Assembly: GCA_017470345.1 (NCBI GenBank)
Contig: JAFUEP010000030.1
Location: forward strand, 62,001 to 126,000
Reading direction: 5' to 3'
From: Prevotella sp.
Lineage (GTDB): Bacteria; Bacteroidota; Bacteroidia; Bacteroidales; Bacteroidaceae
Length of the DNA: 64,000 bases
The notes below the pieces were generated by a model. That model had not been told where the DNA came from, did no database searches, and saw only the letters and a list, made by a program, of their open reading frames with translations. A program made the position numbers and the translations under genes. How positions within the stretch are numbered: position 1 is the stretch's first letter; each line of letters opens with the position of its first letter. Shown piece after piece: positions 15,540 through 41,855 of the stretch.

Positions 15540-16288
15540 CGCGGAAAACAGGACGGTCGGGATGGTCGCGCAGCTCTCTGACGCGCTTGAGCATAGCTTC
15601 GCACACGGGTATCATCTTGGTCAGCCGATCATTCTCTACCAGGATGTGAAGTAGGTGCTTCGCAGTGTTCGTGTAGACAACGACTCCTTGGAATGAGTCT
15701 TCCTCTTGCAGCTCTTCAAGGATGGCATCCAGACGGTCGATGCCTTCGTCTGTCCTGCCGGTATGAGCCATAGCCTTAGCTATAGAACTTTCGGAAGAAG
15801 CGATGTCGCTGAAATCTCCACTGCTATGTGCAAGTCGCGATGCCTCTGTGGCATAGCGTATGGCAGCGGGATAGTTGCCTGAGGAGTGTTCAATGGTTGT
15901 CAGAAGCTGGTAGACACGTAACAAGGTGACGGAGTCGACTTCTTTTTTTTCGACTCGGCGTTTTGCTGTTGGCTTTCTGGTCGATGTCGTCCAGCAGTTG
16001 GAGGCATGTCTGTCGTGCCAAGGGATAATTGTCTAATCCGCCATATTGAGTGATAGCCTTCAGGTATTCGCCACGCATCGGAGTGATGTTGCCCACGATG
16101 ACAGCCGAATCAATTATCACCAATGCCCGTTCCGGATTATTGCGATGAATGCTCATGGCCTTTGGCTCGGTGTAGACGGTGTCGGCGCCATCAGGACGGC
16201 TGCTGTCGTCTGCGGACTGCTGGCAGCAGGTCAGCAGCATCGCCATGATGCTCCATATTATAGATAATGTGAGCTTCCGCTGTTTCAT
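15540..16288 (-). pseudogene. Third TPR-AraC regulator copy, frameshifted and 3'-truncated
   Basis: The 5' part (MKQRKLTLSIIWSIMAMLLT, lipobox region LLTCC, then DTVYTEPKAMSIHR) matches the intact regulator at 40002-41855 closely. The frame breaks in a run of eight T near 15943-15950 on the plus strand. It resumes in another frame (LRVYQLLTTIEHSSGNYPAA onward). Homology stops at RVRELRDHPDR near 15556, beside the right end of the IS element. The membrane span and the AraC DNA-binding domain are lost. A conserved promoter is still present upstream. It is the relic of a third cassette whose remaining genes are gone. Confidence 0.85.
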
Positions 16289-16366
16289 TGGTCGAAAGGT
16301 TTTTGGACGCATGTATATTTGGACTTTTCGGTAGTAGCCCTTTCAGACTTTTTCTCTAGTCGGGTG

Positions 16367-16397
16367 CAAAGATAAAAAATTCAATCTTTCTGCCAAA
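16367..16397 (-). promoter_or_regulatory. Relic promoter of the third regulator copy
   Basis: On the minus strand, TTTG (16394-16397), 19 bp, TATCTTTG (16367-16374). The flanking GGTGCAAAGATA context is the same as upstream of the intact regulator at 41925-41956. Confidence 0.6.
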
Positions 16398-16699
16398 CAA
16401 TTCTGAACTTTTCTATCGGGGAGACCTTCTCTTTGAACCGTTGTGCTACCCCGTATGGCTAAGGCAAGGTGGATGTTCCACCCCATGGAACAGTTGTTGT
16501 GAACGGTTCAAGCGCCCGTTGATTACGGTTCACTTCGGTGCCATCTTCCGTTCTGCCGGACTTTGTCACCTTTATCACAAGAATGCCACGCTTAACATTC
16601 TGATTATCAGTCAGTGTTGCAAAGGTGGCATTCTTTTTGCATAAAAATAAATTTGTTGTGTGAGGCGAATACAGATTGGCACCGGCGGCCGTCTGCTTC
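16398..16699. other. Structured intergenic region after dockerin gene 2
   Basis: No gene is seen here. GAACCGTT (16435-16442) pairs with AACGGTTC (16502-16509) around an inner hairpin GGTGGA/TCCACC. Further on, AGAATGCCAC (16580-16589) pairs with GTGGCATTCT (16625-16634) and runs into a T tract on the plus strand. The second could be a terminator for plus-strand transcription. The first may be a terminator-like or RNA structure. Neither is conserved at the other cassette. Confidence 0.35.
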
Positions 16700-17320
16700 C
16701 TATAGAAGCCCCTTGATGATGGTCACGACGTCGGCGATGGTGATGTTGCCATCTTTGTTTACGTCGGCAGCGGTCTTGACGAAGGTTGCTGGTGGCCTGC
16801 CTACGATGTAGTTTGCAATGGCTACCGCATCGGCGGCGTCCACCTTGCCATCACCATTGACATCACCGAGAATAACTGGATCCTTCAGTTTGATGACATA
16901 GGGGGTGTCCAAACCTACGATGGCGTTTGCCTCGAAGTTGAGTCCCTGGTCAACGACATATATTTTTCCGCCTGTATAGACCTTGAAGAAGATGGGCGTT
17001 GAACCCTCGCCAAAGACGGTGATGAACGCCATGTTCTGCTGGGTGGGGTCTACGACGTCCTTTCCCCTGATGCCATCGCTGGCATACACGGCCACAAGGG
17101 CATTGGTGACGGTCTGTCCATTCTTGTTCTCCACCACTGCCGTGAGACTCATGTTGTTGCTGTACTTGTGGCTGTCCACGAAATCGAAGATGCCATCAGG
17201 GTCTACTCGCTGGTTTATCTGCTCGTCGGTCTCTTCCTGAGCACTTGCTGCGGCAGGCCATATTATCAGGCCTGCCATCAGCACGAGCGTCCATTTGATT
17301 GCTTTTTTCATATTGTGCAT
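16700..17320 (-). CDS. Secreted dockerin-tailed small protein, cassette copy 2
   Basis: The 206-residue protein has a signal peptide (MKKAIKWTLVLMAGLIIWPA to SAQ). The middle domain of about 105 residues (VDSHKYSNNMSLTAVVENKN to NAIVGLDTPYVIKL) aligns with the last module of the adjacent giant protein (VDYHRFADNMTVIAQV to NATVGTIDAPFVL). The C-terminal 55 residues are a type I dockerin with two calcium loops, DVNGDGKVDAAD and DVNKDGNITIAD. It starts 4 bp after the giant's stop codon, so the two are translated from one mRNA. No cohesin is seen in the window, so the dockerin partner is unknown. Confidence 0.85.
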   Translation of the reverse strand: MHNMKKAIKWTLVLMAGLIIWPAAASAQEETDEQINQRVDPDGIFDFVDSHKYSNNMSLTAVVENKNGQTVTNALVAVYASDGIRGKDVVDPTQQNMAFITVFGEGSTPIFFKVYTGGKIYVVDQGLNFEANAIVGLDTPYVIKLKDPVILGDVNGDGKVDAADAVAIANYIVGRPPATFVKTAADVNKDGNITIADVVTIIKGLL

Positions 17321-17324
17321 GTTT

Positions 17325-20300
17325 TTACTTCTTGACTCTCTTCTGTCCGTTCTCAATGTACACTCCCTTCTTCAGGGTGGAGCGCTGCACGCCTTCGGTC
17401 TGACGATAGACACGTCGTCCCTGCAGGTCGTAGAGTCGGCCGTCAGTCCTGCCGGCACTGGCGTCGGTAATACCGGTGGTGGCGGCATTGAGCACGAAGG
17501 GTGCGTCGATGGTGCCGACGGTGGCATTGCTGACATACTCGAGCGTCGCGTCGCAGTCGTTAAGTGTGTATCCGTCATGCATGCGGAACGCCAGCTGTGT
17601 GTGTCCATCTCCCGGTATGGTAAGGAAGAGCAGTCCCTCATCGTCGCAGATGGCGGTCGTGCGGCACTCCTCACCTGCGAACACGCCCACTTCCACTCCT
17701 GCGGCGGGCATTCCGCCACTGATGACCTGCGCGATGACAGTCATGTTGTCGGCAAAGCGGTGATAGTCAACGGGCGTGAAGAAGCCGGACGACTGCTCCT
17801 CGTCATACTGCTGGAGCATGCGTGCCCCTGCAGCGGCAGCCGTTGCCTTCGGATAGCGGAACGTGCGCGCAGCAGCCACCTGGATCATGTAGCCCTGTCC
17901 GGGTGTGAGCGATGTCAGCAGTCCCTTCCACTTGCCGTTCTTGTAGGTGGCAAAGGCACTCTGGCTCTTCACGTAGTCGCCTTCCTGGGGCTCCATGTCG
18001 GCCAGCGCGTCGGTGACGCTCATGGTCTGCGAGGCGTTGTATGCCACCCAGTTCCATCCCTTGTTCAGTGTGATGGGCTTCTCCTGCGGGTTGACCTTTC
18101 GTCCGGTGAGGGCAATGGCGCGTGCCTCGTTCATCTTGACCTGATACATCGACTGGTTGCCCAGCTCGAATGTCTTGCCCATCCACTCTCCGCCGGAGTA
18201 GATCAGGTAGCGTTGCTGGCTCTTCACGATGCTGACGGCATCTTTCACTGTGTTGAAGACGACGGGTATCGTCATGTCATCTGGCTCGACGAAGAGCGAG
18301 AACCATGTCCACCCCTTGCCCAGCGCGAGCATCTGCTCCTGCACGTCGACAGTGGAGAGCATCAGCGGATTGTCGAAGTCGCCTATGATGGCATAGGACT
18401 GGAACGCTACGGTGCTGCTCGTCTGCACCACGGAATAGGTCTCGCCGGTCGATGCGTCGTAAGCCTTGAAGGTCACCTCCTTGCCTGCGTCGTTGGCATT
18501 CTCGGCATCTCCATAGATGATCATCATCACGAAGTAGGCGTCGTAGTCCTCGTCATAGACGGGGTGTGCCACTCCTCGGCACTTTCCGTCGATGAAGGCA
18601 GCTACGATGTCGTCGCAGTCCTCGCTGGGTACGCCCAAAATGTCGAGGCTTCCGATGAGGTTCATCGAGCTCTCATAGTAGCTCTTGTCCACTGCCCACA
18701 GGGGCTCCTCGCCACGCACGGTGACATGGATGGTGAGCGGCACTTCGATGCCGTCGGTGCCGGTGAGGTAGATGGTCTCCTCGTACTTGCCGACGGGCGT
18801 GGACTCGGTGATGGTGAAGGTGACGTTGGTCTTAGCCAGCGGGTTGGTGTCGCCGCTGGTGAGGCTGGCCTTCATCCATGCGGGTATGCCGTTGAGCGTC
18901 CACGAATGCATCGTGCCGCCGTTGTTCTGGATGGTGGCGGTGACGGTGGTGGAGCTGTTGGCCGGCTGGTCGACAGTCAGCTCGTTGGTCTCCCATACGA
19001 GTCGTTTCTGGTTGACGAAGGCGCTCCAGACGGCGGGCAAAGAGTAGTTGCCGTTCACGTCGCGGACGTCGCGGACGGTGAAGTTGAGCGTGCAGCCTTC
19101 GATAGTGGCGGGATCCTCGTCGATGCTGATCACCACCTTGGTGTCGCTGGCGGTGTAGGTGAAGCTGACGTTGGTCTCCGTTGGCTTGGTGCGCAGGGCG
19201 GGTGCCTCGTCGGTGTAGCTGAGCGTTGAGAGCCCGGAGTTGAGCGTTGAGAGCTCTGCCGAGAATCCGCTGCCAGTGAGGTCGTCGTTGGTGCCGACGG
19301 TGACCACCTGGTTGCCGCTGTCGAGCGTCTTGGTCTCGAAGGGATAGTAGGCTGCCAGGCCTGGCTCGCTGCCCGTGAGACGCACCTTGCGCTGCTTGGC
19401 CAGCAGGTCGGCATTCATCGTTGCGCTCCATACGCGCAGTTCGTCGACCTGTCCTTTGAAGGCGCGGTCGAAGGTGTATTCGGCAGTCTCAGCCGAGAAG
19501 GTGGTGCGTTTGGCTCCCACGAGCATCTTGTCGGAGGCGATGCTGCCCACGCCGGCGGCGCTGGTGGTTAGCACGCGCTTGCCGTCGACATAGACGGCTG
19601 CACTGCCCTGTCGCAAGATGTTCAGCGCGACGTGATGCCAGGCGTTGTCGAGGATGTTGCCGCTGGTGGTGGCCAGGGCCGTGGTCTGTTCGGCAGGCAT
19701 GTAGGCCTCCTTGCCGGTGAGTTGCAGCGTGCCGTCGGCATTGGTCCAGAGGGCTACGTCGCCCACCTGCACGAGTTGTGCCTCGGCGTTCTGCTTGTCG
19801 CCGCGCATCCAGAATTCCAGCGCATAGTCATCGACCTCGAAGGTCTGCAACTGCGAGGTATTGATGGCCATGTAGTGGTTGCCGTCGAGGCTGACGGCCT
19901 TGTTTGCATTGTTCAGATACCACGTCTCCTGCGGCATGGTCATGTGACGATTGCGGGCGTAGTCGCGGATGGTCTTACCTTCGCCCTCGTCCATCTTCCA
20001 GTAGCCTATGAGGTGGCGTGTCGATGGATTCTTGGTCTTCGAGCGGTTGAGCAGAGCCGTGGTCATGTCGTGGGCCTCATCCCATAGCAGCAGCTCGTGG
20101 ATGGCACCCTTGAGGCTCTTGCCCACGGCGAGCGGTCCGTTGCCCTCATAGGCGGCGACAACCTGTCCGCTGAAGAGTGATGTGGTCTCGGCATCGGTAG
20201 CGACGGTGGCGCTCAGCTCACCGCCAGTGTCGGTGTTCAGGTAGCTCAGGGTGAGGAAGGCCCACTTGCCAGTTGGCACCTTCTTGTCAGATGTATAGGT

Positions 20301-23300
20301 GTTGCTGCCCAGTGTGACGACCAGCTTGCCGTCGGCATCGGTGGCGACAGCCATCTTCGATGCTCCCGATCCATGACTGAGGATGGTGCCTGCGCCCTGA
20401 ATATTCACCCACATGTCGGCCGAGAAGTCCTTGCCGGCGAGGGTGATGTTGGCCTCGGTCTGTGCAGCTGTCTCAGTGTCTTGCATAGAGAGTGCCGTCT
20501 CATGGGCTATTTCTGCTCCGTTGAGTACGCCAGTCACACGGAAGTTCTGCTCCTTGGTGAGCTCACCTTTGAGTATGGCATCGTTAAAGGTGACACTGAT
20601 CTCGTCGCCGGCACTGAGGATGCCGTCGGTGGGTTCAGGCAGTCCAAGCGGCGTGGGCCGCTGCATGTCCTTCACCAGGGGCAGTTCGTCGCTGTAGCGG
20701 TAAACCTCGCCCGTGCCGTAAGTGCTGACGGAGGCGATGCGGAACAAGTAGTCGCCGTCGGCGAACGAGGCCATGGGCATCGTGTAGGTCACCTTGGCAC
20801 CTGTCTTGGGCAGCAGCTCGTTGTTCTGGGTAACGGCCGTGGAGTCGGTCACATATTCATGGAGCTGTGTCCAGCTGGCCGAGCCCTGCCTCTTGTACTG
20901 CAGGCGGAAGGCCTTCAGTCCGCGGTAGTTGCGGTCGAAGTTGGAGAAGGTCAGGTTGAGGTTAGTGCCCGTCTGTGTGTTCATCAACGTGTTGCTCAAG
21001 GCCAGCTCCACGGGCGATGACGATGGAATGAAGTGGGCCGAGATGAGCACCGTGTCGGCAATGACGTCCCACGTGCTCGTCGGGTCGAACTGACTCTGTG
21101 AGGCCAGTATGACGGCAATGTTCTCATAGTCGAGGATGCTGGTATTCGTCTGCTTCAGCTGCAGCTGCTTGGTGACGGTCTGCCCGGCAGGGATTTTGAT
21201 GATGCGGCTGTCGGTCACCACCTTGCCGTCGATGCTCAGTGCAGCACCGTCGGGGTTCGACTCGTCGTCGACGAGCAGGCGGTAGTAGACGTCCTCGTCG
21301 ATTTCCGAGGCGTTACTTAGGCGCAGCGTGTAGTTGGCCGTGCCGCCGGTGGGAATGTCGCTCACTACGGGCACGTCGACGTCAATCTGGGGTACCTCGA
21401 TCTGCATCGTGGCCTCCTGGATGACGGTGCCGGGTTTGTAGTACTTCGTCACCACCTTGTCCTCGTAGGGGCCGCTGGTCTGGCCGCCGCGGGTGCGGAA
21501 GATGGGGCCGTAGGCACCATACTTGTAGACATCGACCGTCAGGGCATCGTCGTCGCCCTCCTCCTTCAGCGTGTAGGCGAACGAGGTCTTCGTTGTGGTG
21601 CTGGTCTCATCTTCGCGGTGGTAGCCCGCCGTGGTCTCGGTACCAACGTCGAATATGACGCCTGTCTTCTTGATCTCTACACCCCATGTGCGGTTGAGGT
21701 GGACGCCAACGGCCACCTGTACGTCGTACTTGTAGCCCGTGGTTTCCTCAATCTCGACGCTGTTGGTGATGCTGGCGCCTGAGTCGAACGAGAAGTTCTT
21801 GTAGTCGACGCTGTCCTTTTCGGTGCGCAGCTCGTAGGCGCGCACCTTCTGCTCTTCATTGATATACAGGTACTTCTGCCAGGCTGCGATTTGGTTGTTG
21901 CACCACATCACGCTGTCCTGATAGTTCTCGTTCTCGTTGGGAACAATCATTTTGTACGACGGTCCATCGCTGCTGGGGGTCTCGATGCGGCAGTCGAGCC
22001 AGGCAGTATGGCACTCATAGACCTCTGGCGGGTTGTTCTCGCCGTAGCCCTCGTCGCCGGGCGAGCGTGTGGTCAGGTACTTGGGACGGTCGCCGTCGCA
22101 GGTGTGGCCCTCGACGTCGTCGACGGTGGTGAGCAGCGTGTTGCGCAGGGCCTCCAGATTGGGTATCAGCACATTCTCGATATAATTCTGTGTGTAGACA
22201 AACTCCGTGCCGAAGTTCATGCCCGTGGTGACGATGTCGGTCAGTCTGAGCTCCACCTCGTCGCTGGTGCCTATACGCTGGAAGCCGATGTTGCGGGCCT
22301 TGCCGAAGATGATGTTGGTGGCGGTGCCAACGAATACGTCGCCCTGTGCGCCGACATACTCCATAGCGTCGCTGGTTGAGATGGTCTTGGTGGCTGTCAC
22401 GGTGCGGCTCCAGGTGTCGCCAGCCTCACCCTCGATGTTAATCATGACGCCCACTTCGACGTCAGAGGTCGAGTGGATGTCGTTCACTGTGGCCACGCCG
22501 GGCAGCACACCTGTGATGGTCGTAGCGTCGACACCCAGTTTCGAGGTCGTGGTGAGGTGATTCTCGCTGCTCCACGTGCCCATGTTGGCCGTCGAATGGC
22601 TGACGACGGTGCCCGAGCTCCACTCTGCCGATGAACCCGTTCCGGGCGGGTCGCGCAGAATCATGTCCACCATGTCGGGGCCGCTGGTGATGAAGTTGTT
22701 GCCCGTGGGCATGGAGCCGAGGATGATGCCCTTCATGTCGTTGCCGCCCCACGTTTGGGTGCGGCCACCGATGGCGTAGCTCATGGAGATGGTACGCGTG
22801 TAGGGATCCGAGATGTTGGGCAGACCGGCCTTCCATGTGTAGGTGGCCTGGCCGAGGCTGTCTAACTGCAGTTGGTTGGGCTTCAGATCGGCCACCTGTC
22901 CGGCGGTGACTACGTCACCGTCGACCGTGCCGTCCTCGATGTAGACGGGCTGTTCGTCGGACAGCGCGTTGTCGATGTCCACCACGAGGTCCTTCAGGGG
23001 AACGGTGTAGACCACGTCCTTGGTGCCGTCCTTATTGGTGTACTTCTCGTAGGCTTCGATCTCGAAGGTGTATGGCTCGCTCTGCTCGAACACGGCACCA
23101 CCATATTTATATATAGGCTTGCCGCTGGCATCGATGGTGTAGATGTCCTGGATGTCGATACCGCCCATCTCGTCGAGCAGCTTGTAGCTGCTCAGGCCGA
23201 AGGCACCGTCGGTGTGGCCCGTCTGCGTGACGTTGAAAGTGGGCTCGGAGTGGAAGGTCTGCCGCAGCAGGGTGTTGTAGGTGAACACCTGGGCCTTGCC

Positions 23301-26921: not shown

Positions 26922-26971
26922 ATCAATAAAGATTTAAAAGTGATTTGACTGAAATATGTTGATGTTTGTAT

Positions 26972-27175
26972 CTAGCGCATGCCCTTTTCCTTTGCTCCCA
27001 GTTTTTGACTCAGCAAGTTGTGAAGCTCAATGTTCTTGCGTATCTCACGGACGATGACATCGTTCTTTTGTCGCAGCTCCTGTTGGCCATGCAGAAAGCG
27101 CCATAGCAGCACGACGTTGGTGACAACGAGCACGGCGATGATGCCAATGAGCAATATGAGCGTCTTGAAATACAT
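26972..27175 (-). CDS. Small single-span membrane protein, copy 2
   Basis: The 67-residue protein has one transmembrane helix (LILLIGIIAVLVVTNVVLL) near its N-terminus, followed by a charged helix (QELRQKNDVIVREIRKNIEL). It is paralogous to the gene at 39662-39859. The KNDVIVREI stretch matches the juxtamembrane KNRVLAREI of the neighbouring TPR-AraC regulator. It is the first gene of the giant-protein operon, 50 bp ahead of the giant, and has its own promoter and putative operators. The function is unknown. An interaction with the regulator is inferred from the shared helix. Confidence 0.75.
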   Translation of the reverse strand: MYFKTLILLIGIIAVLVVTNVVLLWRFLHGQQELRQKNDVIVREIRKNIELHNLLSQKLGAKEKGMR

Positions 27176-27197
27176 GATGAATTGTTGTTTGATGACG

Positions 27198-27229
27198 CAA
27201 AGATAGGTGTTATTTTTTTACCATGCAAT
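27198..27229 (-). promoter_or_regulatory. Promoter of the cassette 2 structural operon
   Basis: On the minus strand, ATTG (27226-27229), 20 bp, TATCTTTG (27198-27205). The -33 element is imperfect, as expected for an activated promoter. The same arrangement occurs at 39881-39912. Confidence 0.65.
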
Positions 27230-27235
27230 AGCTCA

Positions 27236-27266
27236 GACGAATTGGTGATTGGTTTAAGACGAATTC
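27236..27266. promoter_or_regulatory. Candidate operator repeats, cassette 2
   Basis: GACGAATTG (27236-27244) and GACGAATTC (27258-27266) lie 22 bp apart, immediately upstream of the promoter. They match the four-copy array of cassette 1. Direct repeats with two-turn spacing next to a weak -33 element are typical of AraC-family activator sites. Confidence 0.55.
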
Positions 27267-27402
27267 GTGTGAATCCATCCAGGCTATGAGACGTACGGAA
27301 AAACAGAAGGTCGAGCTTATGAGACATATAGAAAAGCAGGAATAGCCTCGAAGAGGACGTGGCTGATGGGCTGAAAGCTCATTAGCAGCGACCGCTGCCA
27401 AC

Positions 27403-29327: not shown

Positions 29328-29348
29328 AGGTACCTGTGTTTGTGGATG

Positions 29349-29429: not shown

Positions 29430-29461
29430 GCCAGCGGTTGACTCAGATGTCAGCCGCTGGC
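29430..29461 (-). terminator. Terminator of cassette 1
   Basis: GCCAGCGG/CCGCTGGC arms extended by TGAC/GTCA through one wobble give a stem of about 13 bp with a 6-nt loop. It lies 22 bp after the dockerin gene stop. The T tract is weak. Confidence 0.6.
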
Positions 29462-29482
29462 ACAAAGTGATGAGGAGCTGTA

Positions 29483-30103: not shown

Positions 30104-30107
30104 GTTT

Positions 30108-33100: not shown

Positions 33101-36100
33101 TGCCGATGGTCATCTTCGAGGCTCCCGATCCGTGGCTGAGGATGGTTCCTGCACCCTGGACGTTCACCCACATGTCGGCTGAGAAGTCCTTGCCGGCAAG
33201 CGTGATGCTGGCTTCGGTCTGGGCGGTTGTCTCAGTATCTTGCATGGAGAGAGCCGTTTCGTGGGCAATTTCTGATCCGTTGAGTACACCAGTCACGAAG
33301 AAGTTGGCCTCCTTTGTCAGCTTACCTCGGAGGATGGCCTCGTTAAAGGTTAAACTGATCTCGTCACCTGCCTGCAAGATGCCGTCGGCGGGTTCGGGCA
33401 GTCCGAGCGGAGTCGGGCGGCGCATATCCTTTGTCAGGGCAATCTCGTCGCTGTAGCGATATATCTCGTCATTACCGTAGATGCTGACAGAGACGCAGCG
33501 GAAGAGATAGTCGCCGTCAGGGTCTGACATATTGTAATGATAGGTGACCGAAGCGCCTGTGGCAGGTAGCAGCTCTTTGCTTTGGGAGACTTCACCCTTG
33601 TCGGTGACATACTCGTGGAGTATTGTCCAGTTGCTGTTACCTGGCTTCTTGTACTGCAGGCGGAAGGCTTTCAGTCCGCGGTAGTTGCGGTCGAAGCCCG
33701 AGAAGGTCAGGTCGAGGTTGGTACCCGTCTGCGTGTTCATCGTCGTGTTCGACAATGCGAAGTCGACGGGCGACGATGACGGCACGAAGTGTGCCGATAT
33801 CCTGACAGTGTCGGAGATGACGTCCCAAGTGCTTGTCGGGTCGAACTGACATTGCGAAGCGAGCACCACTGCGATGTTCTCATAGTCGAGGATGCTGGTG
33901 TTGGTCTGCTTCAGTTGCAACTGCTTGGTGACGGTCTGTCCGGCAGGAATCTTGATGATACGGCTGTCGGTGACGGGACGACCGTCAATCATCAGGTTGG
34001 CACCATAGGGGTTCGACTCATCGTCGACCAACAATCGGTAGTAGACATCCTCGTCGATTTCTGAGTTATTGCTTAGTCGCAGCGTGTAGTCAGCTGTGGA
34101 GCCAGTAGGAATGTCGCTCAGGATGGGCACGTCTACATTGATCTTAGGCACCTCGATTTGCATCGTGGCCTCCATGATGGTGGTGCCAGGTTTGTAGTAT
34201 TTGGTCTCAGTCTTTCCTTCGTACGGGCAGCAGGTCTGTCCGCCACGTGTGCGGAAGATGAGTCCGTGGTTGCCGTACTTCAGCACGTCGACCGACAGGG
34301 CATCGTCATCGCCATCCTCGGCGAGAGTGAAACTGAAGGTACGCTCGTGGTGGTAGAGCGTGTCGGTGACGTGATGCTCACCGCCAAATGTCTCGTCCTG
34401 GATGTGGATGTTGAATCCGAAGCTGTTGATGGCCAGTCCAAACGTGTTGTCGAGCACAAGGCCACCCGATATCGTCCAGTCGCGTGTCGTCGTGGTGTCG
34501 TTCTCCACCGTCGTCTCGTAGTTGTAGGTACTGCCGGAGTCGAACGAGAGGTTGTCGCCAACGAGGTATTTCTTACGATTCTGGAATGCCTTCACCTTCT
34601 CCATTTCGTTGTCATGGAGGCGGTCTTTCCAGTTGGTCACCTGTTGGTTGATCCATGCTACGGAGTCCTCACAATAGGCATCCTGTGGCGACTTGAAAAT
34701 CTTGTAGGTGCCCTCAGTGCCAAAATTAGCGTTCTCGGGCGAGAGGGTTGTGAGGTAGACCGTGTGATCGGTATTGTTGACGTAGCTGTCGATTTCCTTC
34801 TGCGTTTTGGTCTTCAGGAAATTCTTGCGCATCAGTTCGTAGTTGGGCAGCATGACGTTCTCGATGTAGTTCTGGGTGTACATGAACATCGTCTTGAAGT
34901 CAATGCTCGTCTGAATGATGTCATCCAGACCAAGGTCGACGGTGCCTGTAGCCTGACGTCGGAGGTCGAGGTTACGCACTTTTCCGAATATGAGGTTCGT
35001 AGAGTTGCCGATGAAGACATCGCCTTGGGCACCTACGTATTCGGGTGCGGCCGAGGTGCTGATGGTCTTGGTGACGCTAGTCGTCTCGGTCCACGTCGTA
35101 GAACTCTCATTTTCGTATTCCGTCTTGGCTCCAACCTCGAGGTCATCGCACGACTCGATGGATTCTACAGTTGCGATACCCGTACCGATGACGATCGCTT
35201 TCTCAAATCCGAAGCGATGTTTGAAGCTCAGCTGGGCACTTTCGTGGAAGGTTGTGCCGGTGACCTTGCTGGTGGTCTTCGACGAGCCGCTCTTCCACTC
35301 AGCAAACGAGTTGGTGCCTGGCGGGTCACGCAGGACCATGGTCACCTTCTCAGGACCTGCGGTAACGAAGTTATTGCCTGTCGGCAGGCTGCCCAGGATA
35401 ATGCCTTCCATACCGTCGCCACTCCAGGGGTAGAGGCGTCCGTCGATGTCGTATAGTATAGATATGGTACGCGTGTAAGGTTGAGAGATGTTGGGCAGAC
35501 CGGCCTTCCACTTGTAGGTGGCTTGGCCAAGGCTGTCGAGTACCAGCTGGTTTTCCTCCAAGCCGGCAGTGTCGCCAGGTTTGTGCTCGTCGATATTCTC
35601 GAAGTATACTTTCTGCTCGGAAGAGAGTGCGTTGCTGATGGTGACGACATTGCCAACCAGGGGCACGTGGTCAACTACATCGTTGTCAGCATTAATGTAT
35701 TCCTCGTATCCTTCGATGAGGAAGGTGTAGGGGTCGCCCTGCACGAACAGCGGGGCTTTGTGGTCGGTGACACCGTAGTTGTAGCTGACTGTACCGTTCT
35801 TTACGCTGTACACATTGTCGATTTTGAGCTCGCCCTGTTCGTCGGTCAGCGTGTAGCTGTCGATACCGAACGAACCGTCGTCGCGACCTTGCTGCTTGAC
35901 GGTGAACGTGGCATCAGCGTGGTAGACTTGATTGACTTTTGTGTTGTACTCGTAGAGCTCATAGCTCGAGCGGTCGTCGTTGTAGAGGGTGTCGCTGAGG
36001 ATGTAGTTCGGATTTGTCAGGTCGATTGTCATGGAGTCGCCCACCTTCATGTTGCTCTTCTTCACCTTCAAGCTATCGATACTATACTTCAGCGGAGGCA

Positions 36101-39100
36101 ACATAGCCGAGAATTCACCCGTCTCAGGGTCGGTCTCGATGATAATCTTCTGGCAGTCGACAATCGTCTTTCCGCCCTTGCGACAGGACGTGCTGGCGAT
36201 TCGCTCCGTTGAGGAGGCAATATCGACATCCTTCTCGTTGTTGACATACCTGAAAGTGCCCAAGGTGTCTTTCTTGACGACGTTCAGGCGGTATGTGTCG
36301 TCCTGCGGCGAGAGCACGATTCTGCTAACACCGAGATTGTTATTGCTCAAGCCGAAGCCAATGGGTTTGTCGCCCTGTATGCTGCCACCCACGATGCGAC
36401 CGGTGAAGTTGACCAATGTCTCGTCAAAGAAGTCCATGTTCTTCTTCTCGTCGTCGAAGGTTACTTTCTTGCCCGTGTTGTTGGGATCGGCAGGATAGCG
36501 TCCGCCATCCGCAAACACATGGCCGCTCTTCTCAACGCGTATGAAGTGATCGCCGATGGGCACACTGATGGTGTATGAGCCATCCTCGCCTGTCTGGATC
36601 ACCTCGCCGTCCTTGGCGCAGATGGTGCCGTCGACGTAGAAGAAGGCTCCCACGACGGGATAGTCAGTGCCGGCGTAGTACACCTTTCCGCTGACGGGGA
36701 ACGACGATACGTCCTCGAAGTCGACACCGCTGTGGTTCAGCGACGACATGCTGACGAAGCGCGACTGTGCAGAGGGCGAGAACTCGTGGATGCCCAGCGT
36801 GGGGATGATGGTGTAGCTGGTGCCTTCGCCCGAGAAGGGCACGCCACGTACAGTGTAGTTGCCGATGGAGTCGGTGTAGGCCATCAGGCTCAACTGGTTG
36901 TCAGAGGGAGTCTGATCGACGCTGGCAGCAGGCACCTTTGCCAATGCGTGGCGGCCGTTGGCAGCACCGTTGGTTTTCGAGAAATCGTAGGCCAGTGTCT
37001 GCGAAGCGATGCCTTCATCCAGTGGGTAGTAGATGGCCAGATTGGGCTCGTTGCCTGCCAGCGGGTGGTTGTAGTTCTGGGAAATTTCCTTGTCGCTCAA
37101 AGCTTTGGTGAAGAAGCGCACCTCGTCTATGAAACCGCGATAATTATTGGTATTGTCCATTCCCGCTACGTTTCCGACGACGATGTTGCTAGCCTGCTTG
37201 GCTTTATCCGTCCAATTAAATGTTGCGCTGATGAGTTTTGTCATCGTCGTGTCGGGCGTATGGACTACAATCTTCAGACTATCGACTGAACTGTTGTACA
37301 CGAGGGATACGTGGCTCCACTGATTGGCCGGGATGTAGACTCCCGATGACTTGTAGCCCTGCAACCAGGGTTGAAGCTGGAATCGTTTGTTATTGGTATC
37401 AGCTATCAGATACAGACTGAACACATTGTAGCTGTCGAAAACGATATAGCTTGTGCCGTTCGAATTCATTTCCTCAGAGACAGGGTTGAGGTACATCTGA
37501 ACGGAGAAATCGTCGTTGTAGAGTTGCCTGATGGTAGCGGTGTCGGTCTGATACTTAAGGCCTGCTCCTGCACCAGAGAGGCGCAGGGCATGCATGCCCG
37601 TTGTCAGGTTACCGTCGGTGGTCTGCTGCTTTAGCGTCACTTTGGCATCGCTGACAGCGGCTCCCGTGCCGTAGGTGACGCGTCCGCTGATGACACCCGT
37701 GGCGACGCTGAAACCGTCGACGGTCTCCTCTAAGCCTGGCACTCTCGTCTCGCCGTTCATCATCCAGACCGCCACCTTGTATTCGTTGAAGCTGCCGGGC
37801 AGGGCAGTCACGTCGTCGTAGCTATAGCTGGCAGCAGTGCCCGAGGTGGAGTAGACTTCTGCCCAGTCGCGTTCGCTGCCGCTGCCCAAGGGACGGCGGT
37901 AAATGGTGAAATAGGTTGTGTTGGAACCCACCTGCTTGACCATCCACCTTAGCTTCACCATGCTGCTGTAGGTACCTCGGGTGGCGGTGAACTCGGTCAC
38001 CTTCGACATGCCTTCGAGCTGTCCGGTGACGGGTTCCGTCTCGTAGGTCTTTCCCATCACGTTGATGCGTAGGCGGTAGTAGTAGGTGACGAACAAATCT
38101 AGGTCTTGCCTGTCCTCGAAGCTGCCGCCGGTGGTTTCCGGGCTATCGATGGGAATGGTTTTCATGGGCGTCCAGTCCTGCTTGTCGGTGGAACGTTCGA
38201 CGGTCAAGTTGACCGGCTGTGAGCCGCTGGCATTGTCGATTCCAAGATGCGACCATGAGAAAATGATCTTGTCTTCGTAGGTGTTGGAGGCCGACAAGTT
38301 GGAGAAGAATAGTTCTGGCCTGGAGAAATTGATCTGCTTCTCATACGTCAGCTCGCTACGTGTGGTGCCCGAGGGTGATCCTGTGGGCACGAACACCACC
38401 TTGTAGGTGTATTTCGTGTCGTAGGCAAGGTCGCTGGAGGTATCGTCATACGACCAGGGGTCATCGTAGGAAATGCCGCTTTTGAGCAGCTTCGTGTCCC
38501 TATAGACACTCCAAGTGCCTGCCTTGCTTCGGCCACCCGATTCGTCGGCTGTCCATTCGAGGTGAATATACTTGTCATAGAGGTGTTTGGCGTAGCTGAT
38601 GCTGTTGGCACGTACGAAGCCCGCAGCCGTCACCGGATACCACTGATAGATTTTCACCTCGGGCATCGTGGCGTTGCCGTAAATCTTTTGGTCGGTGATG
38701 ATGTACTCTACGTACTTCGACTGGCTTCCCCAGTAGTCAGTGCGCTCCTCGAAGCCCAGCTCCAGATCGGAGAACTTGCCCAGACCTTTCTTATATGAGC
38801 CATAGGTGGTGAGATTGTCAGTCCACCCCAGGGTATTGTTGGTGGCACCGTTGTAGGTACCCACCGTCGTGGGGCCGTAGTCGCTCTTCAGGTTGCCGCT
38901 GATCTTCATCTTCTGGTAGCCCGTCATCTCGGCCGTAGGGCTACTCACTCCCAGCGTTCCCATCGAGTTGAGCTTCAGGCGGCTGTCGGTGGCGCTGGTG
39001 GAGAATGTCACCTCTTTCCACCATACGCCGTCTTTGTTGGTCTTCCAGCGGCCTTTCACCTTGATGGTGTGGGCGGCTCCCACCTGCAGCTTGTTGATAA

Positions 39101-39596
39101 AGACGAACATGTCAACATAGCGCTGGCCGCTCGTGTTGCTCGACGAAGTGCACTTTGGGTCCCAGAACTTAATGGTATAGGTGATGCCGTTGACGGTCCT
39201 CGAATAGCCGTTACCCCACCAGCCATCATTGTCGTTACAGGCATCCCAGCAGCCTTTTCCATTACCGTCGCCGCCATCGTCACTACTGGAATCGGGCCAT
39301 GCCAGCTCGTAGTCGGGCGAGCAGATGTAGTTGCCGTCGACATAGACTGCCGGACCTTTGTTGTTGCCTTCGGTCTTGTTGTGACAGAAGAAAGAGTCGT
39401 AGCCGTCGGCATCGTAGAAGAGGATCCTCACGCGATAGTAGGGATCGGCCAGCGAAGGGCTGCCAATCACTTTCGTGTAGGTCGACGTTGAGAAATCGGA
39501 TGCCGACCACGCCGGACTGATGCCTCCGATGAGGCACATGAGAAGCAATAGCGGCATCCGCCACCAATGCTTCAATTTTCGTAGTTTTCTTTCCAT
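30108..39596 (-). CDS. Giant multidomain surface protein with LamG and FN3-like domains, copy 1
   Basis: The 3,162-residue paralogue of the protein at 17325-26921 has the same domain order: signal peptide (MPLLLLMCLIGGISPAWS), FN3-like repeats, LamG 1 (about 669-862), a regulatory-like beta domain (about 969), the RDPPGTNSFAEW region (about 1425), EDGDDDALSVDVLKYG (about 1759), paired LamG domains (about 2110-2510), the GWTW/GWNW repeats, the module shared with the dockerin protein, and a T9SS-like tail (LYDLQGRRVYRQTEG). The LamG pair and the last 700 residues are nearly identical to copy 2. The N-terminal 330 residues and the region between RDPPG and GDDDA diverge strongly. It is likely exported by T9SS and presumably binds glycan or protein ligands. 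Confidence 0.8.
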   Translation of the reverse strand: MERKLRKLKHWWRMPLLLLMCLIGGISPAWSASDFSTSTYTKVIGSPSLADPYYRVRILFYDADGYDSFFCHNKTEGNNKGPAVYVDGNYICSPDYELAWPDSSSDDGGDGNGKGCWDACNDNDGWWGNGYSRTVNGITYTIKFWDPKCTSSSNTSGQRYVDMFVFINKLQVGAAHTIKVKGRWKTNKDGVWWKEVTFSTSATDSRLKLNSMGTLGVSSPTAEMTGYQKMKISGNLKSDYGPTTVGTYNGATNNTLGWTDNLTTYGSYKKGLGKFSDLELGFEERTDYWGSQSKYVEYIITDQKIYGNATMPEVKIYQWYPVTAAGFVRANSISYAKHLYDKYIHLEWTADESGGRSKAGTWSVYRDTKLLKSGISYDDPWSYDDTSSDLAYDTKYTYKVVFVPTGSPSGTTRSELTYEKQINFSRPELFFSNLSASNTYEDKIIFSWSHLGIDNASGSQPVNLTVERSTDKQDWTPMKTIPIDSPETTGGSFEDRQDLDLFVTYYYRLRINVMGKTYETEPVTGQLEGMSKVTEFTATRGTYSSMVKLRWMVKQVGSNTTYFTIYRRPLGSGSERDWAEVYSTSGTAASYSYDDVTALPGSFNEYKVAVWMMNGETRVPGLEETVDGFSVATGVISGRVTYGTGAAVSDAKVTLKQQTTDGNLTTGMHALRLSGAGAGLKYQTDTATIRQLYNDDFSVQMYLNPVSEEMNSNGTSYIVFDSYNVFSLYLIADTNNKRFQLQPWLQGYKSSGVYIPANQWSHVSLVYNSSVDSLKIVVHTPDTTMTKLISATFNWTDKAKQASNIVVGNVAGMDNTNNYRGFIDEVRFFTKALSDKEISQNYNHPLAGNEPNLAIYYPLDEGIASQTLAYDFSKTNGAANGRHALAKVPAASVDQTPSDNQLSLMAYTDSIGNYTVRGVPFSGEGTSYTIIPTLGIHEFSPSAQSRFVSMSSLNHSGVDFEDVSSFPVSGKVYYAGTDYPVVGAFFYVDGTICAKDGEVIQTGEDGSYTISVPIGDHFIRVEKSGHVFADGGRYPADPNNTGKKVTFDDEKKNMDFFDETLVNFTGRIVGGSIQGDKPIGFGLSNNNLGVSRIVLSPQDDTYRLNVVKKDTLGTFRYVNNEKDVDIASSTERIASTSCRKGGKTIVDCQKIIIETDPETGEFSAMLPPLKYSIDSLKVKKSNMKVGDSMTIDLTNPNYILSDTLYNDDRSSYELYEYNTKVNQVYHADATFTVKQQGRDDGSFGIDSYTLTDEQGELKIDNVYSVKNGTVSYNYGVTDHKAPLFVQGDPYTFLIEGYEEYINADNDVVDHVPLVGNVVTISNALSSEQKVYFENIDEHKPGDTAGLEENQLVLDSLGQATYKWKAGLPNISQPYTRTISILYDIDGRLYPWSGDGMEGIILGSLPTGNNFVTAGPEKVTMVLRDPPGTNSFAEWKSGSSKTTSKVTGTTFHESAQLSFKHRFGFEKAIVIGTGIATVESIESCDDLEVGAKTEYENESSTTWTETTSVTKTISTSAAPEYVGAQGDVFIGNSTNLIFGKVRNLDLRRQATGTVDLGLDDIIQTSIDFKTMFMYTQNYIENVMLPNYELMRKNFLKTKTQKEIDSYVNNTDHTVYLTTLSPENANFGTEGTYKIFKSPQDAYCEDSVAWINQQVTNWKDRLHDNEMEKVKAFQNRKKYLVGDNLSFDSGSTYNYETTVENDTTTTRDWTISGGLVLDNTFGLAINSFGFNIHIQDETFGGEHHVTDTLYHHERTFSFTLAEDGDDDALSVDVLKYGNHGLIFRTRGGQTCCPYEGKTETKYYKPGTTIMEATMQIEVPKINVDVPILSDIPTGSTADYTLRLSNNSEIDEDVYYRLLVDDESNPYGANLMIDGRPVTDSRIIKIPAGQTVTKQLQLKQTNTSILDYENIAVVLASQCQFDPTSTWDVISDTVRISAHFVPSSSPVDFALSNTTMNTQTGTNLDLTFSGFDRNYRGLKAFRLQYKKPGNSNWTILHEYVTDKGEVSQSKELLPATGASVTYHYNMSDPDGDYLFRCVSVSIYGNDEIYRYSDEIALTKDMRRPTPLGLPEPADGILQAGDEISLTFNEAILRGKLTKEANFFVTGVLNGSEIAHETALSMQDTETTAQTEASITLAGKDFSADMWVNVQGAGTILSHGSGASKMTIGTNANGQLVVTLGNNTYTSNASVPTAKWAFLTLSYAKADAGGNLSASVASDDKTITLFNGIAVAAYEGAGPIAVGKNLSGAIHELLLWDEAHDLSTALLNRSKTKNPSTRHLIGYWKMDEGEGTSIRDYARNRHMTMSAETWYLNNVNKAVALSGSNYLTVPTADLGIFSDDDYAVEFWMRSDKQTAETQLLQMGDVALWMNATGQLQLTGKQAYNDADATVLATNSPSLTDNAWHHVALNVLRQGAAAVYVDGQRVLTTNASNVGTIASDRLLMGVRRTTFATGIDYSYDRLFKGQIDELRIWGATLNAEKLSSNRKVRLGGKESGLMAYFPFEEKGLDGNNQPITLTIPDDLTGSGKVAQLVTPNSEPTTLNYTDEAPALRTKPTETNVSFSYVASDTKIVINIDEDPATIEGTTLNFSVQDVSDENGNYSLPAVWSAFVNCNTLVWKDEELAVDQKANSSSTVTATIVNKGGTMQMWTLNGMPAWLTASTESGTTNPLAETKVTFTVTEATPIGKYEETIYLTGTDGIEVPLTISVIVRGDEPDWAVDETAFDGSENLVASLDILGVPSEDADDIVAAFIDDECRGVAHPEYDEDFDVYLVMMDIYGNGSDAGKEVKFKVYDASTGETYPVVQTSQEVKYESNTLVGDFYTPLQLSAVDVQEQMLALGNGWTWFSLFVEPDDLTVPVVFNSVKDAVSIVKSQQRYLSYSNGSWLGKQFSLGSQSMYQVKMNEARTITLTGKKVNPQEKPIALSAGWNWVAYNASQTMSVTDALADMNPQDGDYVKGQAKFATYMNGKWKGKLTSLIPGQGYMIKVSEARPFHYPKATVAAGARMYQEYVEQPAFFTPVDFHNYAENMTVIAQVMQNGLPASGVEVGVFAGEECRAAGISDDEGLLFLTIPGDARTQLTFRMADGSSVADCDATLEYASNAIVGTIDEPFILNAVVTGINSVNGDTAGSELYDLQGRRVYRQTEGVQRSTLKKGVYIENGQKRVKK

Positions 39597-39661
39597 ATCG
39601 CTAAATATTTAAAGTTGATGATTATTTATAAAAAGGAGGATAATATAATGATGTTTTGGTT

Positions 39662-39859
39662 TCAGAACACGGCAGCACGCGAGATCCTGCGCCGCAGCTC
39701 CTCGCGGAGCTTGACGTTCTCCTGAATCTCGCGGATGATGGCATCGTTCTTCTCACGCAGCTCACGCTGGCTGCGCAGGTTGCGCCACAGCAGCACGCTG
39801 ATGATGACAACGAGCATGGCGATGATGCCGATGAGTAGGATGACAGTTTCAGATTGCAT
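39662..39859 (-). CDS. Small single-span membrane protein, copy 1
   Basis: This 65-residue protein starts MQSETVILLIGIIAMLVVII. One membrane helix is followed by a charged amphipathic helix (RELREKNDAIIREIQENVKL). An earlier ATG at 39883 lies on the promoter -7 element, so the ATG at 39859 is preferred. It is paralogous to 26972-27175. The KNDAIIREI stretch matches KNHVLAREI after the membrane span of the upstream regulator. The giant gene begins 65 bp downstream. Confidence 0.75.
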   Translation of the reverse strand: MQSETVILLIGIIAMLVVIISVLLWRNLRSQRELREKNDAIIREIQENVKLREELRRRISRAAVF

Positions 39860-39880
39860 ACGTACGTAAAAATGATGTTG

Positions 39881-39912
39881 CAAAAATAGGCATTTTTTCT
39901 CGTATGCGCAAT
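39881..39912 (-). promoter_or_regulatory. Promoter of the cassette 1 structural operon
   Basis: On the minus strand, ATTG (39909-39912), 20 bp, TATTTTTG (39881-39888). It is identical in geometry to the cassette 2 promoter and shares its GCAATAG-TCAGACGAATT flank. Confidence 0.6.
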
Positions 39913-39918
39913 AGTTCA

Positions 39919-39990
39919 GACGAATTCACGGACGTTTTCAGACGAATTCACGGATGAAAAGACGAATTCGCGGATGAAAAAGACGAATTC
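39919..39990. promoter_or_regulatory. Four-copy GACGAATTC operator-like array
   Basis: GACGAATTC starts at 39919, 39941, 39961 and 39982, that is, with spacings of 22, 20 and 21 bp. Each copy is followed by (A/G)CGGA. The array begins 6 bp upstream of the structural promoter and ends 11 bp from the stop codon of the regulator gene. The two-turn phasing fits cooperative binding of AraC-family dimers. Confidence 0.6.
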
Positions 39991-40001
39991 ACGGACGGAC
40001 A

Positions 40002-41855
40002 TCAAGTCATGTTGTCTTGCTGCTCCCGGTACTGTGATGGGGTGAGTGCGTACTTTTGACGGAAGTTGCGGCTGAAGGTGTCGGCACTCGAGAAACCGCT
40101 CTGGCGGGCTACGTCGCCAATGGACAGGTCGGGGTGCTCGGCGAGCAGCTTGGCTGCGTAAGGCAGGCGGCAGTCGGTGAGGAAGTCGATGAGCGACTTG
40201 AAGGGACTGCCCTTGCTGAAGGCGGAACCGATGCGTTCCTTGGGCACGTTGAAGCGCTCGACAAGTGCCTGGCGGTCGAGCTGCGGGTCGAGATAGAGCT
40301 GGTCGCGCAGGATGGCATCGCGGAGTTGGTTGAAGAGGGTGGTCTCTTCCGACTCCGTGCTCTCTAAGGATAATCCTGGCGTCTCTGGTTTTTCTGCATT
40401 TGATGAGGGGGAAGTCACTTCTGCAGGAGTAGGGCTGACGGTCTGACTTTTCTCCCACATCTCTTTATACTTGATGGCCTCGGCAATCTCACGGGCCAGC
40501 ACATGGTTCTTCTTGTTGGTCTGGCGCCGTTTGTAGAAGAAATACACGGCGAAGGCGATGGCGGCCAGCAGCCCTGCGATGATGGCAATGGTCAGCAGGC
40601 GGAAGAAACGGGCATCGGCCTCAGCCTCCTTGCGTGCGAGCTGCTCTTCCTGCAGGTGATAGACGGTGGCCAGCTCGTTAAGCTGCTCACGCTGGTTGCG
40701 AGCATCCAGGCTGTCGCGCACGATACTGGCACGCTCCAGGTATTCGATGGCTTCGCTGAGGCGACCGCGCATCTTTGCTGCCACGCAACATGAGGTGAGA
40801 CGAATGAAATTGTTGACGTTGATAGTATCATCTCCCATCTTGGCAGCAATGAGGGCCATGGCCTTGTCAAACCGTTCGAAATCGCCCAGATAGTGGTAGA
40901 CACCGCTCATCATGCGCTCGCAGCTCATGGTTTGGCTCCATGGCAAGCTTCGCAAGTCGGCTTCAGCAGCGCGGGCCTGGGCCATGTACTGTGGCCTCAT
41001 GCCGTCGCCTGCAGTATTGGCCAGACGTGCGTAGGCTGCAGTGAGATAGACCAGTGCATGTCCTTGGGCTAAGTCTGTGAATTCCGATGTGTCGAAGTCC
41101 TCGGCGATGCCGCTGAAACGATCAGGATGGTCGCGGAGCTCTCTTACGCGCTTGAGCATTGCTTCGCACACGGGTACAATCTCGGTCAGCCTATTGTTCT
41201 CGATTAAGATGTGAAGCAGTCTCATTGTAACGGTATGGTAATTCACTACTCCGTGGAAGGAGTCATCCTCACGCAGCTCGTCGAGAATGGGCTTCAGGCG
41301 CTCGATGCCTTCATCGGTCTTTCCTGTTCCTGCCAAAGCCTCGGCTATGTGCCCTTCGGAATCGGCTAAGTCTCTGAAATCACCATATTCATGTGCCAGG
41401 CGCGATGCCTCAGTGGCATAGCGTATGACGGCGGGAGTGTTGCCCGAGGTGTATTCGATGCTTGTCAGCAGCTGGTAGATGCGCAGGATAGTGATGGCAT
41501 CGGCCTCCATTATTTGACTCGACGCTTTGCTGTTTGCTTTCTGATCTATGGCGTTCAACACGTTGAGGCATGTCTGTCGTGCCAAGTGATAGTTGTTCAG
41601 TCCGCCATACTGGGTTATAGCCTTCAGATACTCGCCGCGCGTAGGGGTGATGCTGCCCACGATGACGGCCGAGTCAATCATCACCAGCGCCCGCTCCGGT
41701 TGTGTGCGATGTATGCTCATGGCTTTGGGCTCGGTGTAGACGGTGTCGAGACCATCTGCACGTTGGCTGCTGTCGTCAGCCGACTGCTGGCAGCAGGTCA
41801 GCAACATGGTTATGATGCTGCACATAATATATAATGTAGGCTTCGGCAGTTTCAT
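40002..41855 (-). CDS. Membrane-spanning TPR-AraC transcriptional regulator, copy 1
   Basis: The 617-residue protein starts MKLPKPTLYIMCSIITMLLT followed by CC, a lipoprotein-like export signal. An upstream in-frame ATG at 41879 is also possible. The N-terminal 400 residues are TPR-like (DTVYTEPKAMSIHR, GEYLKAITQYGGLNNYHLAR). A membrane span lies near 418 (AIIAGLLAAIAFAVYFFYK). The juxtamembrane helix is KNHVLAREIAEAIKYKEMWE. An AraC-type domain occupies about 512-617 (DLSIGDVARQSGFSSADTFS, RNFRQKYALTPSQYREQQ). It is the first gene of cassette 1 and is followed by the operator array. I infer that it senses a periplasmic signal and controls the small membrane, giant and dockerin genes. Confidence 0.85.
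   Translation of the reverse strand: MKLPKPTLYIMCSIITMLLTCCQQSADDSSQRADGLDTVYTEPKAMSIHRTQPERALVMIDSAVIVGSITPTRGEYLKAITQYGGLNNYHLARQTCLNVLNAIDQKANSKASSQIMEADAITILRIYQLLTSIEYTSGNTPAVIRYATEASRLAHEYGDFRDLADSEGHIAEALAGTGKTDEGIERLKPILDELREDDSFHGVVNYHTVTMRLLHILIENNRLTEIVPVCEAMLKRVRELRDHPDRFSGIAEDFDTSEFTDLAQGHALVYLTAAYARLANTAGDGMRPQYMAQARAAEADLRSLPWSQTMSCERMMSGVYHYLGDFERFDKAMALIAAKMGDDTINVNNFIRLTSCCVAAKMRGRLSEAIEYLERASIVRDSLDARNQREQLNELATVYHLQEEQLARKEAEADARFFRLLTIAIIAGLLAAIAFAVYFFYKRRQTNKKNHVLAREIAEAIKYKEMWEKSQTVSPTPAEVTSPSSNAEKPETPGLSLESTESEETTLFNQLRDAILRDQLYLDPQLDRQALVERFNVPKERIGSAFSKGSPFKSLIDFLTDCRLPYAAKLLAEHPDLSIGDVARQSGFSSADTFSRNFRQKYALTPSQYREQQDNMT

What the first reader, a model, noticed from the sequence alone, without database searches (positions are those of the whole stretch)
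15540..41855. Tandemly repeated four-gene surface-protein cassette
The order TPR-AraC regulator, small membrane protein, ~3,170-residue LamG/FN3 giant, dockerin protein occurs twice on the minus strand with identical spacing (4 bp between giant and dockerin gene in both). A third regulator is a relic. Each giant takes about 9.5 kb, so the unit is costly but was kept and duplicated. A dedicated membrane regulator per unit suggests independently controlled surface variants. I do not recognise this as a described system.
Basis: partly seen in the sequence, partly recalled or inferred. Interest (0 to 1): 0.9.

Follow-up and report, generated by a model that had tools for sequence, protein, structure and literature searches.

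The report
Shuffling sensor-controlled giant surface-protein cassettes
A rumen Prevotella-type bacterium carries, wedged between two ordinary neighbouring genes, a row of cassettes that each appear to pair a membrane sensor and its own DNA switch with one enormous, probably surface-exposed protein, and related bacteria carry the same cassettes with sensors and giant proteins reassorted.

Summary
In detail: two minus-strand cassettes (regulator, small membrane protein, ~3,180-residue LamG/FN3-like giant, dockerin protein, 4 nt between the last two) plus a relic third regulator beside an IS1634-type transposase. Three things go beyond it. (1) Between regulator and small gene lie direct repeats 22 bp apart abutting a Bacteroidota-type promoter. 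Such pairs occur downstream of this regulator family at 44 of 64 loci (2.25 expected), and half-sites co-vary with the regulators' DNA-binding domains. (2) The small protein resembles the regulator's own transmembrane/juxtamembrane segment. (3) The 29 kb array is an insertion between mlaD and dnaA, which lie 21-855 bp apart in 31 of 31 same-genus pairs found on one contig. The order recurs (regulator+small+giant at 9 of 58 giant loci) but is not obligatory: 44 of 58 giants lack the regulator nearby, and the regulator module also fronts other genes. Regulator and giant trees conflict. Best reading: a portable membrane sensor-activator module coupled to a probably surface-exposed giant, reshuffled by recombination. 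Activation, export and the small protein's role are inferred; ligand and giant function are unknown. The paper searches found no description.

The parts
40002..41879 (-). Regulator A: invariant lipobox-like cysteine, periplasmic TPR-like helical solenoid, one TM (about 428-450), juxtamembrane helix, AraC HTH (start at 41855 or 41879)
   Evidence: topology inferred
39919..39990 (-). Operator-like array A: four GAATTCGTC copies, starts 22, 20 and 21 bp apart
39881..39911 (-). Promoter A: TTG-N20-TATTTTTG
   Evidence: consensus match; transcription start not tested
39662..39859 (-). Small TM protein A (65 aa)
30108..39596 (-). Giant A (3162 aa): signal-peptide-like start, FN3-like, LamG x3, unassigned central domain, C-terminal repeat domain, weak T9SS-like tail
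29483..30103 (-). Partner A: domain shared with the giant's C-terminal region plus type I dockerin
27504..29327 (-). Regulator B (607 aa from ATG; open frame to 29465)
27236..27266 (-). Operator-like pair B: GAATTCGTC and CAATTCGTC, 22 bp apart
27198..27228 (-). Promoter B: TTG-N20-TATCTTTG
26972..27175 (-). Small TM protein B (67 aa)
17325..26921 (-). Giant B (3198 aa)
16700..17320 (-). Partner B with dockerin
15540..16312 (-). Relic third regulator, broken reading frame, cut at its 3' side; an intact relative heads a whole third cassette in L247
14112..15467 (+). IS1634-family transposase beside the relic
13628..42745 (.). Extent of the insertion between mlaD (42746-43648 -) and dnaA (12215-13627 -)

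Best explanation
Each cassette is a self-contained, membrane-sensed surface-protein operon. Shown from sequence: a regulator with a helical TPR-like part, one membrane helix and an AraC domain; 22-bp-spaced direct repeats abutting a promoter; then small TM protein, giant and partner. Inferred: the TPR-like part is a periplasmic sensor; when it binds its unknown ligand, the AraC domains bind the repeats as AraC does at araI (analogy recalled) and activate the operon. The small protein, made first, carries a copy of the regulator's TM and juxtamembrane helix and so probably joins the regulator in the membrane and tunes it, most likely as negative feedback. The giant and its partner are exported, perhaps by the type IX system, as an adhesin-like pair. 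Arrays grow, shrink and exchange sensors and cargo by recombination between cassettes. This array was inserted between mlaD and dnaA.
For: Repeats: 44 of 64 distinct regulator loci have a 14-mer pair at least 11/14 alike at 20-23 bp spacing (2.25 expected from shuffles), 31 at 13/14 or better (0.00 expected), with the peak at exactly 22 bp. Real-promoter control: 16 of 20 promoters downstream of the regulator versus 14 of 203 other intergenic promoters. HTH-half-site co-variation: r 0.464, 0 of 5000 permutations (35 loci, near-duplicates not removed). Promoter-anchored pairs stand before 8 of the 9 giants that have regulator and small gene. The operator-promoter pattern occurs only twice in the own genome. 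Small protein versus regulator TM/coil: hhalign E 5e-8 and 2.9e-7. In 13 giant cassettes small-protein divergence tracks regulator TM/coil even after removing HTH (partial r 0.476, p 0.007). In L241 the regulator's TM/coil is 96% and HTH 84% like regulator A although the sensor is only 43-45%. Insertion. Exchange: conflicting trees (AU p 6.65e-5 and 8.24e-8; clades chosen after seeing the trees) and a chimeric regulator in L248. Export: T9SS sorting domain over cut-off in giants L245, L290 and L292; SprA in 17 of 20 genomes searched. Model: solenoid, then a single helix 374-479, then HTH.
Against: No expression, binding or localisation data. HTH-half-site and small-TM/coil correlations are confounded by linkage and shared ancestry. 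In the wider set of 19 pairs the small protein tracks the sensor (r 0.786) as well as TM/coil (0.773) and HTH (0.823), so the TM/coil preference holds only within giant cassettes. hhalign between TM segments can be inflated by hydrophobic composition. 20 of 64 regulator loci show no such pair. The window giants' T9SS tails score below the curated cut-off (17.8 and 15.3 versus 23), three of six relatives' tails also fail, and SprA was not found in the own genome (61.55% complete). 44 of 58 giants lack the regulator. No promoter-anchored pair was recognised before the giant next to the regulator in L245 and L246, and in L271/L309 the giant lies directly behind the regulator. The small protein could as well activate as inhibit. 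The giant's central domain matched nothing and its structure job did not finish.
Confidence: 0.6

Rival explanations
1. The regulator and the giant are merely neighbours: the 22-bp repeats serve another factor or another purpose and the giant is expressed independently.
For: 44 of 58 giants have no regulator nearby. 20 of 64 regulator loci have no recognised pair. No expression data exist.
Against: Repeats follow the regulator family into other gene contexts and their half-sites track the regulator's HTH. Reg-less giants in G034, G033, G041 and G045 show no promoter-anchored repeats, although one G034 giant has a perfect 22-bp pair about 420 bp upstream without a recognised promoter.
Confidence: 0.12
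2. The small TM ORF is not a regulator partner but a leader or an export or assembly helper for the secreted cargo.
For: It is early in the operon. A second, unrelated-looking kind of 58-68 aa TM protein occupies the same place in L113, L177, L178 and L219, so some small TM protein may be needed for other reasons. In 19 pairs it tracks the sensor as well as the TM/coil.
Against: Similarity to the regulator's TM/juxtamembrane segment; in 13 giant cassettes it follows that segment (r 0.555) more than the sensor (0.319); it also occurs with non-giant cargo.
Confidence: 0.3
3. The giant and the dockerin protein build a cellulosome-like complex for fibre binding, the dockerin docking on a cohesin.
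For: Dockerin_1 at 3.8e-13 in the partner; 21 dockerins in the genome; carbohydrate-active enzymes in the window; many relatives come from rumen samples.
Against: No Pfam cohesin in the own genome (incomplete) or in giant A. Where a partner is recognised, 23 lack a dockerin and 5 have one.
Confidence: 0.12
4. A simple tandem duplication of one operon, slowly diverging, with no cassette movement or exchange.
For: Same order and spacing in A and B; dockerin proteins 91% alike.
Against: Giants of other genomes (L248, L249, L242, L297) lie closer to B than A does. Regulator and giant trees conflict. Cassettes have different flanking genes in other genomes. The array is absent from the mlaD-dnaA site in the other genomes tested.
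Confidence: 0.06

Closest known systems
Porphyromonas gingivalis FimS-FimR two-component system (PMC11053733, passages read)
   Same: Periplasmic TPR sensor in the inner membrane controlling a surface protein; weak profile match of regulator A to FimS (7.5e-4, 17.9 bits, far below the model's cut-off)
   Different: FimS has a histidine kinase and works with a separate response regulator; here sensor and AraC DNA-binding domain are one protein and no kinase domain was found
AraC-family activators at tandem half-sites (araI type, recalled)
   Same: AraC HTH; about two-turn-spaced direct repeats next to the promoter
   Different: Membrane-tethered with a TPR-like sensor; 22 bp spacing next to a Bacteroidota -33/-7 promoter
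Hybrid two-component systems of Bacteroides polysaccharide loci (recalled)
   Same: Periplasmic sensing, AraC-type output, local targets; profile hit to PDB 12aw, a hybrid two-component protein (3.8e-11)
   Different: No kinase or receiver domain found here; target is a giant protein, not a SusC/D locus
MgrB-PhoQ small-protein feedback (PMC2789325, PMC8404706; starts of abstracts in the listing)
   Same: Small membrane protein under the control of the system it may tune
   Different: Here the small protein resembles the regulator's own TM/juxtamembrane segment; its effect is untested
T9SS-exported Bacteroidota surface proteins
   Same: Large multidomain protein with a sorting-type tail (over cut-off in three relatives, below it here)
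   Different: Not tied to such a regulator cassette in the papers searched

Membership tests
AraC-family regulator | C-terminal double-HTH DNA-binding domain | tested here: met
   PF12833 1.7e-14 and 4e-14; SoxS structure 4.6e-15 with the profile; helices 508-624 in the model
TPR sensor protein | Solenoid of paired antiparallel helices or TPR sequence motif | tested here: met
   TTC29 (1.3e-5) and designed-TPR (5.9e-4) matches with the profile; successive helices 46-370. Pfam TPR only at E 1.5.
FimS-type sensor kinase | Histidine kinase domain | tested here: not met
   No kinase domain in Pfam or NCBIfam scans
Membrane lipoprotein | Lipobox cysteine | tested here: inconclusive
   Cysteine 30 invariant in 9 of 9 and 16 of 16 aligned regulators (the two window rows are in both); no signal predictor run
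T9SS cargo | C-terminal sorting domain TIGR04183 over cut-off | tested here: not met
   Window giants 17.8 and 15.3 bits, cut-off 23; three of six giants tested from relatives pass, 30.3, 38.8 and 32.0; L241, L247 and L302 do not
T9SS cargo | Translocon present in the genome | tested here: inconclusive
   SprA in 17 of 20 genomes searched but not in the 61.55%-complete own genome
Cellulosome | Dockerin plus cohesin scaffold | tested here: not met
   21 dockerins, no PF00963 cohesin in the own genome (genome incomplete)
MgrB-like feedback protein | Small TM protein inhibiting the sensor that controls it | not testable with these tools
   Architecture only

The most novel reading that the evidence does not exclude
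A new class of portable bacterial control module in which a membrane one-component sensor carries its own two-turn tandem operator and drives an operon whose first product is a truncated copy of the sensor's own membrane helix. In these bacteria the module has captured a family of giant surface proteins, and sensor, operator-reader and cargo are reassorted between strains, so each strain shows its own set of separately sensed surface giants.
Probability: 0.35. Interest if true: 0.82.

Novelty: new variant of a known kind. Interest (0 to 1): 0.64.

Why it matters
It gives a testable rule, seen across the genus, for which membrane regulator controls which neighbouring operon in Prevotella-type gut and rumen bacteria: read the half-sites after each TPR-AraC gene. 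It would show how very large surface proteins are put under separate sensors and reassorted between strains. It also proposes that small membrane proteins can arise as copies of a regulator's own membrane helix, which can be tested directly.

Tried and rejected
Simple recent duplication was rejected. An obligate four-gene unit was rejected. Repeats as chance or as a feature of all promoters were rejected. A cellulosome was disfavoured. IS ends: no inverted repeats found in 13600-15700, so the element's limits are undefined. No tRNA, and no Rfam family over its gathering score, in the window. The giant's central domain gave no match in phage records, no convincing Pfam or NCBIfam family and no convincing solved structure (best E 0.31). 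I suspected a pore-forming-like fold from its Ser/Thr-rich stretches (impression only), but its structure job did not finish, so nothing is claimed. A second regulator subtype with an inverted repeat instead of direct repeats was not resolved. Paper searches that found no description: (listings only, apart from passages of PMC5831590).

Full report
OBSERVATION. On the minus strand, cassette A is regulator 40002-41879, small protein 39662-39859, giant 30108-39596 (3162 aa) and dockerin protein 29483-30103. Cassette B is regulator 27504-29327, small protein 26972-27175, giant 17325-26921 (3198 aa) and dockerin protein 16700-17320. The giant-dockerin gap is 4 nt in both. Identity between the paralogues is 51% (regulators), 58% (giants) and 91% (dockerin proteins). 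The giants are most alike in their C-terminal half. A third regulator is a relic (79% and 70% identical to regulator A in two frames) ending beside an IS1634-family transposase.

DOMAINS. The regulators have an AraC HTH. TPR is missed by Pfam (E 1.5), but the profile of alignment A4 (16 sequences) matches TPR proteins in the PDB (TTC29 1.3e-5). An AlphaFold2 model (mean pLDDT 79.7, pTM 0.54) shows successive helices 46-370, one continuous helix 374-479 that includes the TM segment, a low-confidence linker 478-508 and the HTH. A lipobox-like cysteine is invariant in 9 of 9 and 16 of 16 aligned regulators. The giant has LamG (three stretches) and FN3-like domains (14 of 27 aligned members, window included, at E up to 0.1). 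Its C-terminal tail scores below the T9SS sorting-domain cut-off in both window giants; of six giants from relatives, three picked for their canonical-looking tails among them, three pass. The dockerin protein's N-terminal domain is similar to a domain near the giant's C-terminus (30% over 124 residues, 7e-11). Residues about 1280-1900 of the giant have no convincing family or solved structure.

OPERATORS. Between regulator and small gene, A has four GAATTCGTC copies, starts 20-22 bp apart, and B has two copies 22 bp apart. In both, the last copy ends 7 bp before the TTG of a TTG-N20-TANNTTTG promoter. I searched 249 genomes of the genus with the regulator profile: 73 had a hit at E up to 1e-40. 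I took the DNA downstream of 60 of the listed hits, nine earlier loci and the two in the window (71). After removing 7 near-duplicates, 64 remained. Of these, 44 have a repeat pair at 20-23 bp (at least 11/14 alike; 2.25 expected from shuffles), 39 at 12/14 (0.35 expected) and 31 at 13/14 (0.00); 20 have none. The commonest spacing is exactly 22 bp (33.3 of 54 weighted), and 32 of 64 are anchored to the promoter. As a real-sequence control, 16 of 20 promoters downstream of the regulator but only 14 of 203 other intergenic promoters have such a pair; five of the eight control hits at 12/14 or better lie in front of giants themselves. Half-sites vary with the regulator's HTH (35 loci, near-duplicates not removed; Mantel r 0.464, 0 of 5000 permutations); linkage and common descent also contribute to that correlation. 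In the own genome the operator-promoter pattern, at up to 3 mismatches, occurs only twice, at the two cassettes.

SMALL PROTEIN. It is a 60-94 residue single-TM protein (starts uncertain) found in many loci. Profile comparison aligns it to the regulator's TM and juxtamembrane helix (E 5e-8 and 2.9e-7), and some single-sequence hits fall inside other regulators. In 13 giant cassettes its divergence follows the regulator's TM/coil (r 0.555) and HTH (0.629) more than the sensor (0.319); TM/coil still counts after removing HTH (0.476, p 0.007). In the wider set of 19 pairs this preference disappears: sensor 0.786, TM/coil 0.773, HTH 0.823. In L241 the regulator has a different sensor (43-45% identity) but TM/coil 96% and HTH 84% like regulator A, next to an A-type operator, small protein and giant. 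The suggested role, a membrane partner that tunes the regulator, is inference. Other small TM proteins occupy the same place elsewhere.

RECURRENCE AND MODULARITY. A scan of the species-genome collection found 376 stretches encoding a relative of the giant; the best 80 gave 74 loci, mostly rumen and gut Prevotella-type MAGs. The census therefore covers the closest relatives only. Of 73 giants counted, 58 have at least 2.5 kb upstream: 14 have the regulator within 1.5 kb, 11 the small gene, 9 both. Of 58 with over 1 kb downstream, 28 have a recognised partner, 5 of them with a dockerin. Some of these loci overlap or come from one genome, so they are not all independent. A promoter-anchored repeat pair was recognised before 8 of the 9 giants with both regulator and small gene; L245 is the exception. 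Exact order including a dockerin protein occurs in L241 and L297. L246/L298 hold several operator-small-giant units behind one regulator. Giants without a regulator in G034, G033, G041 and G045 lack promoter-anchored repeats, though one G034 giant has a perfect 22-bp pair about 420 bp upstream without a recognised promoter. The regulator module also fronts what look by eye like secreted proteins, lipoproteins or RND efflux genes.

HISTORY. In 31 of 31 same-genus pairs (30 genomes) with both genes on one contig, mlaD and dnaA lie 21-855 bp apart; in the window they are 29,121 bp apart. Two further genus genomes with dnaA had no mlaD on the same contig. Eleven order-level pairs are 286-539 bp apart, and ten order-level genomes had no same-contig pair. 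So the array is an insertion. In L247 a stretch 99.6% identical to the end of dockerin gene B is followed by DNA 94% identical to the relic and an intact regulator heading a full cassette; its 5' neighbour differs, so a mis-assembly at that end cannot be excluded. L248 carries cassette B at 98.7% with a regulator whose first 45 or so residues match A and the rest B. The regulator tree joins A with L247, the giant tree joins A with L241, and both conflicts are significant (AU p 6.65e-5 and 8.24e-8, the tested clades being chosen after seeing the trees).

COMPARISON. The nearest described sensor is FimS of P. gingivalis (PMC11053733, passages read), a periplasmic TPR sensor kinase controlling fimbriae; no kinase domain is found here. 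MgrB (starts of abstracts in the listing) is the nearest analogue for a small feedback protein. No paper describing the combination appeared in searches of an open-access library, which lacks most subscription journals.

VERDICT. A real, recurrent and apparently undescribed combination of two known kinds of parts. The sequence evidence for the operator-like repeats is strong; activation, feedback, export route and biological role remain to be shown.

Noticed in passing
G000 whole genome: 21 type I dockerin domains but no Pfam cohesin in a 61.55%-complete genome. [quoted passage not shown]
   Followed up: partly
window 54484-54541 and 42619-42661: 22-bp tandem repeats sharing AGAAGCGGT, one directly after a glycosyl hydrolase gene with a dockerin (51523-54483), one upstream of regulator A; unlike the cassette operators in sequence.
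   Followed up: partly
L168, L170, L174, L191, L196, L114, L116: A second subtype of the regulator is followed not by direct repeats but by an inverted repeat (ATGCACGCATTTGG ... CCCAAATGCGTGCAT or close variants), terminator or palindromic operator.
   Followed up: no
L110 (G022:C36), L164, L190, L163, L112: Short regulators with what looks like only a TM plus AraC domain, without the TPR sensor, occur alone (L110) or downstream of the longer ones: TM-only, TM-HTH and full versions coexist.
   Followed up: partly
   Followed up: partly
L113 (G028:C31): The same regulator plus 22-bp repeats precedes a different small TM protein and genes that look by eye like an RND efflux system.
   Followed up: no
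G196:C254 (L223-L226): Contig with two regulator-giant units, further giants, one giant split in two frames and partner copies.
   Followed up: partly
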